A DNA stretch of 64,000 nt from NCBI RefSeq assembly GCF_964204645.1, contig NC_134027.1:167501-231500 (forward strand). Reading direction: 5' to 3'. The first letter of the stretch is position 1. Each line of letters opens with the position of its first letter. The notes under the pieces are model-generated. The model worked only from the letters and a program-made list of their open reading frames with translations. It did no database searches and was not told the origin of the DNA. The stretch comes from Tubulanus polymorphus. Its lineage: Eukaryota; Nemertea; Palaeonemertea; Tubulaniformes; Tubulanidae. The translations under genes and the position numbers were made by a program. Shown piece after piece: positions 5,790-57,040 of this stretch.

Positions 5790-6535
5790 GAGAATTAGAA
5801 TAAACTTGCGATGTTAAGAACTTGTGCTGATCAATGAGAACAAGAGACATTTTTCTGTAATCGTGATCACCATAAAAATCCCGACCATTTTGCGGACCCT
5901 CGAAATCAGCATAATAAAGGCATAATTTGATTGCGTTTGTGACGAAGACAGTAGCTAGCAATCAGTAAGAACTAATTCACAATCTCTCTCTCCCTCTCTC
6001 TCTTCTCTCACTCTTCTCTCTTCTCTCTCTCGAGACTGGGGGAGATCGTTCTATGACATACAATTACCGCACAAATTCTTCTGTGACATGACTTTCATTT
6101 GTGAGTTGATATATGAATACTTTGTATGTCGTCGCACATCAGACTTTCAACTCACCGAGATCAACTCTCAACATTAACCAGTCAATACAGGACTGCAATC
6201 CCACAGATATTCGTCACACCTGAAAAGTGTATCCCCGACCCGGGCCCGGGCCCAAATTTTAGCACTGGTCAAATTGTAGAGTGGTGAATGCAAACTATTC
6301 CCGGAAGTATCTCGCTTACCGCAGCACTGTTTTGATATCTCCTAAATTAGGTACGGATCAAATATATCAAATATCACCCGGAATACTGTCTATATATGCT
6401 ACATGTTACTCCGCGTCACAAACTGCCATATATATCAAATCGCTATTTCACCATTTCACCGCTATTTTCTTAACTAACAGAAAGTTTAAATCATCGTATG
6501 CGAAAGTTCCAATGAAAATATCAATAAGGATGAAT
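5790..6535. other. Non-coding stretch
   Basis: A CT-rich microsatellite lies at 5983-6030. The rest is AT-rich with no recognised coding sequence. Confidence 0.5.
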
Positions 6536-6989
6536 AATCAATAATTTTCACGATTGGTAGAACACTATATCCGTGTTGACGCGATGAGGAGAGAATCCCA
6601 CAATGATAATAAAAAAAGTCCGAAAATGAAACTTCGAGATAGCAGTTTATTTCAACGTTTCGACTATATCCTAAATGACTTTAAGTTTCATTTATATTTA
6701 TACTCACTATTTTTGTTTATAATTACCCCTTAGTTTGCTTCCCTTTAATCTATTTTAGCGTGTAACTGTTTCTACGTTAATTTTCCTTTAGTTTGTATCA
6801 TCTCTGATTACTTGAATTAGTCTCTTTGTCTCTGGATTGTATATATATCTCATAATTTCTGTAGTATCTCATTATTCCTGAAGATGACTATTAGGATATA
6901 GTCGAAACGTTGAAATAAACTACTATCTCGAAGTTTCATTTTCGGACTTTTTATTATCATTGTGGGATTCTCTCCTAATCAATAATTTT
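6536..6989. mobile_element. Foldback retroelement copy 1 with 13-bp direct repeats
   Basis: A 428-bp element (6549-6976) lies between perfect 13-bp direct repeats AATCAATAATTTT at 6536-6548 and 6977-6989. The arms (about 6584-6673 and 6892-6976) are near-perfect inverted repeats and share AGGAGAGAATCCCACAATGA at the outer side. The left end carries about 35 bp more (GATTGGTAGAACAC to GTTGACGCGATG) that the right end lacks, so the ends are not equivalent. About 200 bp of unrelated AT-rich DNA separates the arms. The right arm includes the hammerhead-like motif. No ORF is present, so it is non-autonomous. Confidence 0.85.
6872..6918 (+). ncRNA. Minimal type I hammerhead ribozyme-like motif
   Basis: In order: stem I TTATTC; core CTGAAGA (consensus CUGANGA); one extra T; stem II GACTAT, loop TAGGAT, ATAGTC; core GAAA; CGTT with the predicted cut after it; and stem I' GAAATAA, which pairs with TTATTC if one A bulges. 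Stem III would be ACGT, self-complementary, as in Penelope-type hammerheads said to act as dimers. The extra T before stem II departs from consensus, so activity is uncertain. Confidence 0.6.
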
Positions 6990-7093: not shown

Positions 7094-7205
7094 ACGCACA
7101 CAGCGCGCACACAGCGCGCACACAGCGCGCACACAGCGCGCACACAGCGCGCACACAGCGCGCACACAGCGCGCACACAGCGCGCACACAGCGCGCACAC
7201 AGCAC
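7094..7205. repeat. 11-bp GCGC/ACAC minisatellite
   Basis: About ten perfect copies of CGCGCACACAG. It is alternating purine-pyrimidine and can adopt Z-DNA. The Cys/Ala/Arg ORFs across it are artefacts. Confidence 0.95.
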
Positions 7206-7289
7206 GCGTGGGGGTGATGATCATTTTATCATTCTCTACAAACAGATAAATTTGTCATCGACTGCGGAAACTATAAAATGCCAACTCAG

Positions 7290-19478: not shown

Positions 19479-21857
19479 ATGGATGACCCGTTCCTGTGTT
19501 CATGTAAAGCCTGTACGCGATTCTGGAAAATCAATTTCGGCAAATATTCACCGGAACTATTACAGACATCACCGATATGCCGTACTGCTAATACCGCTAC
19601 ACTTCTCTGGCAGAAAGGATTAATCAAAGTTGGAGACCGTGTGAAAGTTGCAGGAAAATATCCAGGTATCAATTCGAAATAAAAATCTATGAATTAGATT
19701 TCATGACCAGTCTAAGCCCGTCTTATTTCTGATCATCTAAAAACACTTGAGACCATTTTTTTCAATTTCTGTCATGACTATTATTTGAGATACAGGGTGC
19801 AAATCAACAGTTGATGATTTTGAAATTTATTCTATGACATTATTTACTCAAACTTTATCATCATTTCATTTCTCTGTTGATGAAGTTGAGTCGAAACTTT
19901 GAGACTAAACCGTAAACTGTTTATTAAGTGTGAAATACCGAGATCAATTTTTCGTCATGCAGAAATAGAAGTAAAATATATAATTTTGTTTTGTTGTTTT
20001 AGGGTTAGTGAAATTTGTTGGAAGTTTAGATGAAAATCTAATGGCTCCAGAAGTTTATGTTGGAGTCTCATTGTATGATAACAGTAAGTAGGTTTAATCA
20101 CACGTGTGATCAGTTTGTTGTTAGATTGTTCTGAATAGAGTCACAGGACCCTATTCAGTTTTTAAAGAACAACTTTTAAGAAACTGTGTACCCTTTTTTT
20201 GCGTGAAATTGGATGGTTGTGTATTATGAATCATGACTTCAAATTAGCCTCTAAAATGCATCTGGCGGGCTTCATTTAAAAAAAATCTTCATGGTCCCTT
20301 GTTCTGGGATTATGGGTCCCTACTTCATTAGTTCTCAGCCCCAAAGTAGAATTTTGATTTAACTGAATGCGGATTTCAATGTTTGTTTGTTTGTAGTTGG
20401 TTCAACTCATAACGGTGTGTATGATGGTAAACGTTATTTTCACTGCGCTCGAGGTCACGGAGCGTTCGTTCCTTACTCTCATGTACGCCTGATTACTCCA
20501 CCTGAGAAACATCCTCCGATACGCGGTAATTACATGTTCAAAAACTACGAGGAAATTAAAAAACGACGAAGGCTTCGAAGACAAAAGTAAGTTTCATTCG
20601 TAGTCAGTGTTTTCCTCGACAGGTTTTAGCTGAAGATATCTTTTGATTTCAGGGAAATATTGGGATTTTCTATTCCCCGATCATTAAAAACCCTGAGTCT
20701 AATCATAGAACTCTATAGAGTTCTATGGTCTAATGATTCGTATTTTGTTTTTATCATAGAACAAGAAACTTATTTTGACTGTATAGAATTTCCACATCTT
20801 GAAATAAACAGATCAATCTTTAGTCAGGGTTCCTACGGATCAGGCAAAATCAGGCTATTCTACGTGAAAAAAATAATCTCGAATTCATTCTTCGGTTTGT
20901 AGAGATCCAAATTTTGAAATTGGAATGACGTTAGAGGAAAGACAGATGAGAAGACCGAGTACAAGCAGTAGTTCAACTTTAACAGCTGGCGATCCTTTAG
21001 ATGTCAAATACTTGGTAAATATCTCAAAATCAAATTTCGTAATAAAACTTTCATTCGCACTGTTTCAGATTATAAGAAAAGTTCGGCTAAACTTGTGAGG
21101 AGCGTAAACATTGATAGTTGTTTCACTGATGTAAACATTGATAGTTGTTTCACTGATGTAAACATTGATAGTTGTTTCACTGATGTAAACATTGATAGTT
21201 GTTTCACTGATGTAAACATTGATAGTTGTTTCACTGATGTAAACATTGATAGTTGTTTCACTGATGTAAACATTGATAGTTGTTTCACTGATGTAAACAT
21301 TGATAGTTGTTTCACTGATGTAAACATTGATAGTTGTTTCACTGATGTAAACATTGATAGTTGTTTCACTGATGTAAACATTGATAGTTGTTTCACTGAT
21401 GTAAACATTGATAGTTGTTTCACTGATGTAAACATTGATAGTTGTTTCACTGATGTAAACATTGATAGTTGTTTCACTGATGTAAACATTGATAGTTGTT
21501 TCACTGATGTAAACATTGATAGTTGTTTCACTGATGTAAACATTGATAGTTGTTTCACTGATGTAAACATTGATAGTTGTTTCACTGATTGCTTGATCTC
21601 TTTTATTCCAGGATCTCATGAAACAAAACGAAAAAAATGCTCGAAAACTTCGTCGTCAAAGTAACAGCACGGTCAGTCTGCCGGAGATTCCGTCGACGAC
21701 GACGTATAAAGATAAACAATTCGAGAAATGGAAGAAGGAATTTGGAGGCGGGGAACGAGGAGAGAAAATGGCGCGGACTTTAGAACGGTTACACGTCGCG
21801 TTCGATAAAGGATTGGAATTAGAAAATGAAACCAATGATTCGCTGTATGATTATTGA
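19479..21857 (+). CDS. CAP-Gly domain protein (271 residues)
   Basis: Coding blocks 19479-19665, 20003-20083, 20397-20586, 20903-21014 and 21612-21857 join in frame (816 nt); a non-coding first exon ends at 19102. The N-terminus holds C-S-C-K-A-C (residues 7-12), possibly a small metal site. Residues about 50-122 form a CAP-Gly domain: VGDRVKVAGKYPGLVKFVG, then YVGVSLYDN, then NGVYDGKRYFHCARGHGAFV. In the family these bind microtubule plus-end or EEY/F-type tails; the usual GKNDG is replaced here by THNGVYDG. The C-terminus is basic and probably helical (EKNARKLRRQ, then KQFEKWKKEF). I do not recognise the orthologue. A cytoskeletal role is inferred from the domain only. AATAAA follows at 22290 and 22313. 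Confidence 0.85.
20704..20727. repeat. Perfect 24-bp palindrome in intron 4
   Basis: CATAGAACTCTA followed directly by its reverse complement. The ATAGAACT word also occurs in the SINE-like repeat at 18.6 kb. Confidence 0.7.
20785..20828 (+). repeat. Dispersed 44-bp block, copy 1
   Basis: Matches 55799-55842 at about 41 of 44 positions. In one frame both encode EFPHLEIN-SIFSQ. It lies within intron 4 of the CAP-Gly gene. Source element unknown. Confidence 0.6.
21104..21589. repeat. 27-bp minisatellite, exactly 18 perfect copies
   Basis: 486 bp of 18 identical units (GTAAACATTGATAG plus TTGTTTCACTGAT). It sits in the last intron of the CAP-Gly gene and ends 22 bp before the acceptor of exon 6. 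Because 27 is a multiple of three, three frames stay open (VNIDSCFTD, ISETTINVY, SVKQLSMFT repeats). None has splice or start context, so none is called as a gene. Confidence 0.98.
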
Positions 21858-51580: not shown

Positions 51581-51800
51581 TGACGGACCATTAACCATTA
51601 TACAAACTTCCAATGACAACAGCTCAGTGGTCTAGGGGTTAGGACAGTGGACTGCCAACTGAGAGCCCCCGGTTCAAATCTCTACTGAGGCCATAACTAG
51701 GGTTAGGGTTACTGATCTAGGATTAGGGTTAGGGTTACTGATCTAGGATTAGGGTTAGGTTTACTACTTCTGTTTAGCCTTTTCTTGTTTTGTACTTGGG
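51581..51800 (+). mobile_element. tRNA-derived SINE copy B with TTAGGG-rich tail
   Basis: A-box-like TGGTCTAGGGGTTAGGAC (51628-51645) and B-box-like GGTTCAAATCT (51671-51681); AGCTCAG (51621) can pair with CTGAGGC (51685) as an acceptor-like stem. The tail has three GGGTTAGGGTTACTGATCTA blocks (51700-51760). It is preceded by the expanded 24-bp array. Confidence 0.8.
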
Positions 51801-56654: not shown

Positions 56655-57040
56655 GGTGTAATTAGGTTGAGGTCGAAACGTCGAATAAGCTATTAGCCGA
56701 TGGAAACATTTGGACCGATGAGGAGAGAATCCCACAATGATAATTAAAAAAAGTCCGAAAATGAAACTAAGAGATAGTAGTTTATTTCAAACTTTCGACT
56801 ATATCCTAATAGTCATCTTCAGGACCGTTCATTATTCCTGAAGATGACTATTAGGATATAGTCGAAACGTTGAAATAAACTACTATCTCGAAGTTTCATT
56901 TTCGGACTTTTTTTTATTATCATTGTGGGATTCTCTCCTCATCGCGTCAACACGGATATTGTGTTCTATCAATCGTAAACATTCGGACCATTTTTCATTC
57001 TTAGAGTTGGATTTAATATGATTATAGAATGTGTACTCGT
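56655..57040. mobile_element. Foldback retroelement copy 2 nested in an older relic
   Basis: A 260-bp element (56717-56976) between 13-bp direct repeats AAACATTTGGACC (56704-56716) and AAACATTCGGACC (56977-56989), one mismatch. It is in reverse orientation relative to copy 1: here the long end (GTTGACGCGATG to GATTGATAGAACAC when read on minus) is on the right. The arms are almost adjacent, with about 10 bp between them (near 56826), making a hairpin of about 115 bp per arm. The flanks match the relic at 2106-2240 without the insertion. Confidence 0.88.
56832..56878 (+). ncRNA. Minimal hammerhead ribozyme-like motif, second copy
   Basis: Identical to 6872-6918: TTATTC, CTGAAGA, T, GACTAT-TAGGAT-ATAGTC, GAAA, CGTT, GAAATAA. 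A mirror copy in the left arm (minus strand, about 56781-56824) has GAAAGTTT in place of GAAACGTT and does not keep stem I. Confidence 0.6.

What the first reader, a model, noticed from the sequence alone, without database searches (positions are those of the whole stretch)
6872..6918. Hammerhead ribozyme-like core in a foldback element
The 47-nt segment shows, in order, stem I, CUGAAGA, stem II with loop UAGGAU, GAAA, and a predicted UU cut site followed by the stem I partner. Stem III is the self-complementary ACGU, as reported for Penelope-like elements and animal retrozymes, which use dimers. The relic at 2110-2152 has stem II GACG/CGTC where this copy has GACT/AGTC, a paired change that supports selection on the fold. 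One extra U before stem II is a departure.
Basis: partly seen in the sequence, partly recalled or inferred. Interest (0 to 1): 0.85.

Follow-up and report, generated by a model that had tools for sequence, protein, structure and literature searches.

The report
Hammerhead ribozyme in a Penelope-like retrotransposon
The 47-base motif is a genuine minimal hammerhead ribozyme fold carried by a Penelope-like jumping gene present in well over a thousand copies in this animal-type genome; the kind is already known, but the copies record unusually clearly how such elements insert.

Summary
Positions 6872-6918 hold a complete minimal hammerhead core: stem I, CUGAAGA, one extra U, a 6-bp stem II, GAA, palindromic ACGU, cut after 6911. 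It matches over 1,600 near-identical genomic sites and no reversed-pattern control. Rfam misses it. A covariance model built only from other hammerhead families of this genome finds it at E about 7e-12. Those families keep stem II through changes on both sides (94% paired; 0 of 500 shuffles reach the pairing or covariation score).

The 'foldback element' is a Penelope-like element (PLE) insertion. Full-length relatives carry pLTR(HHR)-ORF(RT + GIY-YIG)-pLTR(HHR). The window copy is two inverted 3' ends, head to head, between 14-bp target duplications. Minimal dimer-type hammerheads in PLEs are known, as are inverted pLTRs and a 'tail' at one end, so this is a new member of a known kind.

New detail: 29 of 29 head-to-head insertions have one short and one long end. 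Arm junctions pile up 9 nt upstream of the hammerhead, 30 nt after a TATA box. A 69-bp hammerhead satellite clusters near contig ends. Catalysis was not tested.

The parts
6535..6548 (.). left target-site duplication TAATCAATAATTTT
   Evidence: direct repeat D3; found again at the mapped arm ends
6549..6674 (-). left arm: inverted PLE 3' end of the long type (with the 37-nt tail), reaching inward only to hammerhead loop II
   Evidence: 94% identical to the pLTR/5' region of a full-length copy, reference positions 74-197; inverted repeat
6675..6975 (+). right arm: sense PLE 3' region (3'UTR and pLTR), short end, no tail
   Evidence: 98% identical to the full-length copy, reference 1-162 at 6818-6980; upstream part matches the 3'UTR of L022
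6840..6848 (+). TATA-box-like TATATATAT, about 31 nt upstream of TCATT with A6871 as the likely transcription start
   Evidence: sequence; arm junctions genome-wide peak at this TCATT; promoter role inferred
6872..6918 (+). minimal type I hammerhead, dimer type: stem I 6872-6877/6912-6918, CUGAAGA 6878-6884, extra U 6885, stem II 6886-6891/6898-6903, loop II UAGGAU 6892-6897, GAA 6904-6906, palindromic ACGU 6907-6910, predicted cut after 6911
   Evidence: sequence, genome pattern count, leave-family-out covariance model
6976..6989 (.). right target-site duplication TAATCAATAATTTT
56716..56982 (.). second head-to-head PLE insertion: left arm short end, right arm long end; no target duplication detected
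56832..56877 (+). intact hammerhead in the right arm of the second insertion
   Evidence: 50.6 bits
56784..56828 (-). damaged hammerhead in the left arm of the second insertion
   Evidence: 28.3 bits
2108..2154 (+). dead hammerhead relic (CUGAAUA, GAGA)
   Evidence: 27.7 bits
   Evidence: 29.5 bits

Best explanation
The motif is the minimal, dimer-type hammerhead of a high-copy PLE family. It sits in the pLTR right at the predicted transcription start. Full-length copies are pLTR(HHR)-ORF-pLTR(HHR), with the two hammerheads 2,857 nt apart in the copy measured, so in a tandem transcript (or between two transcripts) the palindromic ACGU of two copies can pair as a shared stem III and cleavage would release unit-length RNA with 5'-OH ends. 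The window copy is a non-autonomous head-to-head product. The element's endonuclease opened both target strands. Both DNA ends primed reverse transcription inside the RNA, one at the short start site and one at the long start site 37 nt downstream. The two cDNAs ran toward the RNA 5' end and were joined, leaving inverted arms and a 14-bp target duplication. Here the left cDNA stopped inside hammerhead loop II, so only the right arm carries a whole hammerhead. Shown here: sequence, covariation, PLE coding partners, end types, target duplications and the junction peak. Inferred: promoter use, two-ended priming and RNA cleavage.
For: Over 1,600 copies of the motif with zero control matches. The leave-family-out model finds it. 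Across 19 members of other families, stem II is 93.7% paired, with two-sided changes at 4 of 5 pairs; structure-wide pairing is 74.9% against 49.9% shuffled (0 of 500), and the covariation score is 0.634 against 0.20. On 50 distinct stem II pairs from a search that did not fix stem II beyond its first pair, 71% pair against 47% shuffled, maximum 57% in 2,000. The ORF has RVT_1 and GIY-YIG above Pfam cut-offs. Full-length copies carry direct hammerheads either side of the ORF. 28 of 29 inverted insertions have target duplications of 9-15 bp, and 29 of 29 have one short and one long end. Arm junctions peak at TCATT, 9 nt upstream of CTGA (genome counts 103, 29 and at most 8 for inner gaps of 0-30, 31-61 and 100-130 nt). 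Published PLEs show the same inverted pLTRs, tail and small target duplications (PMC3846280) and, for the anole PLE, extension of both target strands from two internal start sites plus a hammerhead (PMC11167929).
Against: No Rfam hit at gathering threshold. No cleavage assay or RNA-seq. Stem I outside this family is poorly kept (51% of cells paired). The window copy as RNA is predicted to fold into a long hairpin between its arms (-160 kcal/mol) that sequesters the hammerhead. Stem II changes in diverged copies of this family are not compensated, so copies decay neutrally after insertion. In the anole PLE, hammerhead mutants still insert and no reads end at the cut (PMC11167929), so cleavage may not matter for insertion.
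Confidence: 0.88

Rival explanations
1. A DNA transposon or MITE with terminal inverted repeats that happens to carry a hammerhead-like string.
For: Two near-perfect inverted arms (62 nt, 98%) and target duplications; short copies of about 250 bp.
Against: The arms end at two different positions in every insertion, target duplications vary from 9 to 15 bp, full-length relatives encode RT + GIY-YIG, and the arms are the element's 3' end, not symmetric termini.
Confidence: 0.02
2. A metazoan retrozyme: a small non-autonomous element moved as hammerhead-processed circular RNA.
For: Hammerhead, low GC, tandem arrays with a 69-nt unit elsewhere in the genome.
Against: The window copy has inverted arms, not direct tandem units; the hammerhead lacks the stem III loop; the sequence is the 3' end of a coding PLE. 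Described metazoan retrozymes are 170-400 nt tandem repeats (PMC7229834).
Confidence: 0.05
3. The hammerhead is a passive passenger: conserved only because the element amplified recently, with no RNA function.
For: Copies in this family are nearly identical; changes within the family are uncompensated; hammerhead mutants of the anole PLE still insert (PMC11167929).
Against: Different families in the genome keep stem II by paired changes, and loop II AG is invariant in all 19 although the search did not require it.
Confidence: 0.12
4. Head-to-head copies arise by self-priming on an antisense RNA (hairpin cDNA), as proposed for bdelloid PLEs, rather than by priming from both target ends.
For: Palindromic junctions occur here and in Adineta vaga (PMC3846280).
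Against: Self-priming does not by itself predict one short and one long outer end in every insertion (29/29); many junctions hold filler bases between arms.
Confidence: 0.15

Closest known systems
Minimal type I hammerheads of Penelope-like elements (Cervera & de la Pena 2014; Lunse, Weinberg & Breaker 2017; both not readable here, known through PMC7761336, PMC6466107, PMC6155905)
   Same: located in PLE pLTRs, no stem III loop, palindromic site allowing a double hammerhead, tandem arrangement in full-length copies
   Different: extra nucleotide (mostly U) between A9 and stem II in the families read here; I could not check whether those papers list it
PAc, Poseidon of Anolis carolinensis (PMC11167929)
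   Same: RT + GIY-YIG, hammerhead near the ORF start, two internal RT start sites separated by a 30-40 nt tail, both target strands extended; its ORF start overlaps the start of stem II, which by my inference implies CUGANG-AUG, the same extra U
   Different: in the copies read here the ATG in the hammerhead is followed by a stop after five codons and the ORF starts downstream; PAc does not report a strict pairing of the two start sites within one insertion
Pen2a_Av, Adineta vaga (PMC3846280)
   Same: inverted pLTR plus pLTR-ORF-pLTR, 31-bp tail at one inverted end, 9-bp target duplication, palindromic junctions; L066 here has the same layout
   Different: low copy number there; more than a thousand copies and many ORF-less foldbacks here
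Metazoan retrozymes (PMC7229834)
   Same: genomic type I hammerheads in tandem repeats
   Different: unit 170-400 nt with a stem III; here a 69-nt unit with no stem III loop, and the window copy is not tandem
Terminons (Arkhipova et al. 2017, from memory)
   Same: PLE-type RT elements with hammerheads linked to chromosome ends
   Different: here it is a short satellite that lies near contig ends, not a giant telomere-attached element

Membership tests
Hammerhead ribozyme | conserved core CUGANGA ... GAAA ... UH | tested here: met
   one extra U after A9 is a departure; published alignments allow one or two inserted nucleotides next to CUGAnGA (PMC10085705)
Hammerhead ribozyme | stem II kept through paired changes | tested here: met
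   between families; not within this family
Hammerhead ribozyme | stem I kept through paired changes | tested here: inconclusive
   5-6 bp in this family; 51% of cells paired in other families, two-sided changes at all 4 pairs
Hammerhead ribozyme | Rfam model match above threshold | tested here: not met
   models expect a looped stem III (from knowledge)
Hammerhead ribozyme | self-cleavage after H17 | not testable with these tools
   no bench or RNA-seq data
Dimer-type PLE hammerhead | no stem III loop; palindromic stem III strand able to pair between two copies | tested here: met
   ACGU (AACGUU) palindrome; cofold of two copies of the window-type sequence pairs through it, -17.9 against -13.4 kcal/mol for two monomers; in the 69-nt variant the predicted dimer is a different extended duplex
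Penelope-like element | RT plus GIY-YIG endonuclease in one ORF | tested here: met
   RVT_1 39.5 bits and GIY-YIG 25.5 bits, both above cut-off, in an 832-aa frame
Penelope-like element | pLTRs in tandem or inverted arrangement, optional tail, variable target duplication | tested here: met
Penelope-like element | RT phylogenetic placement | not tested
   no PLE reference proteins in the libraries on hand
Metazoan retrozyme | 170-400 nt direct tandem repeats | tested here: not met
   window copy has inverted arms; the arrays elsewhere have a 69-nt unit
DNA transposon / MITE | fixed-length target duplication and symmetric termini | tested here: not met
   target duplications 9-15 bp, ends always unlike

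The most novel reading that the evidence does not exclude
A strict complementary-end rule for PLE insertion. In every head-to-head insertion one DNA end starts reverse transcription at the short site and the other at the long site 37 nt away, never both at the same one. Both cDNAs tend to run to the RNA's 5' end, which coincides with the 5' edge of the hammerhead. This suggests that both DNA ends copy one RNA molecule, or one asymmetric RNA pair, with the hammerhead uncleaved in the template.
Probability: 0.5. Interest if true: 0.65.

Novelty: new member of a known kind. Interest (0 to 1): 0.48.

Why it matters
The role of hammerheads in Penelope-like elements is described as unknown in the reviews read. 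Here is a genome with more than 1,600 copies, several hammerhead families with clear covariation, and insertions whose target duplications survive. It allows the insertion mechanism (two start sites, both DNA ends primed) and the state of the template RNA (hammerhead cleaved or not) to be read from genomic copies and then tested with purified protein.

Tried and rejected
Rfam scans of the window, of 20 loci and of a tandem array gave no hammerhead. A first structure string was one column off and showed no covariation; the slide control exposed the error and the corrected string was used; model R1 built on the wrong string was not used. One genome pattern had a typing error and found nothing, then was corrected. 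The DNA-transposon and retrozyme readings were rejected on end structure and coding content. The relic at 2110 was rejected as evidence of selection. The two key papers on PLE hammerheads are not in the held library, nor is Craig et al. 2021.

Full report
Observation. The segment 6872-6918 reads UUAUUC-CUGAAGA-U-GACUAU-UAGGAU-AUAGUC-GAA-ACGU-U|GAAAUAA. Rfam reports nothing at gathering threshold in the window. The genome search gives 838 forward and 830 reverse exact matches and no match to the reversed pattern.

What carries it. The inverted repeat 6613-6674/6891-6952 belongs to a larger insertion, 6549-6975, between two copies of TAATCAATAATTTT (6535-6548, 6976-6989). Locus L022 has the same arms around an ORF with RVT_1 and GIY-YIG. 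A protein search finds 72 matches in the genome, many above 97% identity. The longest copies are 833-841 codons, with a direct hammerhead just upstream and another downstream of the ORF; in L053 they start at 840 and 3697. L066 shows inverted arm, pLTR, ORF, pLTR. That is the layout published for Adineta vaga Penelope elements, including the tail on one inverted end (PMC3846280).

Is the fold selected? Within this family, no: of 66 distinct sequences selected for a change in the second or third stem II pair, none restores Watson-Crick pairing; about half keep a G-U pair and the rest are mismatched. That is what neutral decay of inserted copies looks like. Between families, yes. Searches that do not fix stem II beyond its first pair uncover GAUCUC/GAGAUC, GGCUAA/UUAGCC, GGCUGU/ACAGCC, GGAUGG/CCAUCC, GAGGUU/AACCUC and others. 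On 50 distinct pairs, 71% of positions 2-6 pair against 47% after shuffling, maximum 57% in 2,000. On a 19-sequence alignment stem II is 93.7% paired, with two-sided changes in 4 of 5 pairs, and the covariation score is 0.634 against 0.20; sliding by one to three columns abolishes it. These 19 were chosen as family representatives, which favours clean stems; one search is the less selected test. A model built from the 19, none of this family, ranks the window motif first at E 6.8e-12.

The extra nucleotide. In the families read here one nucleotide, usually U, lies between A9 and stem II; relics have C, G or A there. In the anole PLE the ORF start lies at the start of stem II with C3 and G8 before it (PMC11167929), which fits CUGANG-AUG. 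The extra U may therefore be a trace of an ancestral start codon; this is inference. In this family that ATG meets a stop after five codons.

How insertions form. Arms end at two sharply defined 3' positions, about 160 and 197 on the reference. In 29 head-to-head insertions, each with distinct flanks, 15 are long-short and 14 short-long; none has two like ends. 28 have target duplications of 9-15 bp, mode 13. If the two ends were chosen independently and equally, 29 of 29 unlike would have probability near 2e-9. The anole enzyme extends both target strands and starts at two internal sites (PMC11167929); the strict pairing per insertion is what the present data add. Inner arm ends peak at reference 52-57, the sequence TCATTATTC just upstream of the hammerhead, with TATATATA 30 nt further upstream. 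Genome-wide head-to-head pairs with inner gaps of 0-30, 31-61 and 100-130 nt number 103, 29 and at most 8. The simplest reading is that template RNAs begin at TCATT and cDNAs run off their 5' end. In those copies the hammerhead cut site lies inside the cDNA, so the template was not cleaved there. Loci were chosen for an intact hammerhead, so copies of cleaved templates would have been missed; that test remains open.

The window copy itself. Its left cDNA stopped in loop II and its right cDNA continued into the 3'UTR. Only the right arm has a whole hammerhead. As a single RNA the arms pair along their length (-160 kcal/mol), so in-cis activity of this copy is unlikely. Two short RNAs of the window type are predicted to dimerise through AACGUU.

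Arrays. A 69-nt unit with one hammerhead each occurs in at least 806 adjacent pairs of units, in unrelated flanks in the three loci compared. 22 of 24 clusters on contigs C1-C5 lie within 2 Mb of a contig end, against 14% expected; single copies on C1 show 7 of 45 against 12% expected. Clusters may be related by duplication, so this is descriptive.

Verdict. Observation confirmed, interpretation supported with corrections, system known. The distinct value is in the end-pairing rule, the junction at the likely transcription start and the short satellite.

Noticed in passing
L009:1404-1736, L010, L011; genome C1-C10: Tandem arrays of a 69-nt unit, each with a hammerhead core, at least 806 adjacent pairs genome-wide, concentrated near contig ends.
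   Followed up: partly
   Followed up: partly
window 7095-7207: Eleven-base tandem repeat CGCACACAGCG, 10 copies, just downstream of the insertion.
   Followed up: no
window 51698-51765: 26-bp tandem repeat containing TAGGGTTAGGGTTA, telomere-like, in a window 168 kb from the contig start.
   Followed up: no
window 21104-21589: 18 identical copies of a 27-bp repeat, one of many minisatellites in the window.
   Followed up: no
A1 alignment, loop II: AG in loop II is invariant in 19 sequences of other families and in this family, although not required by the search; a possible tertiary contact.
   Followed up: partly
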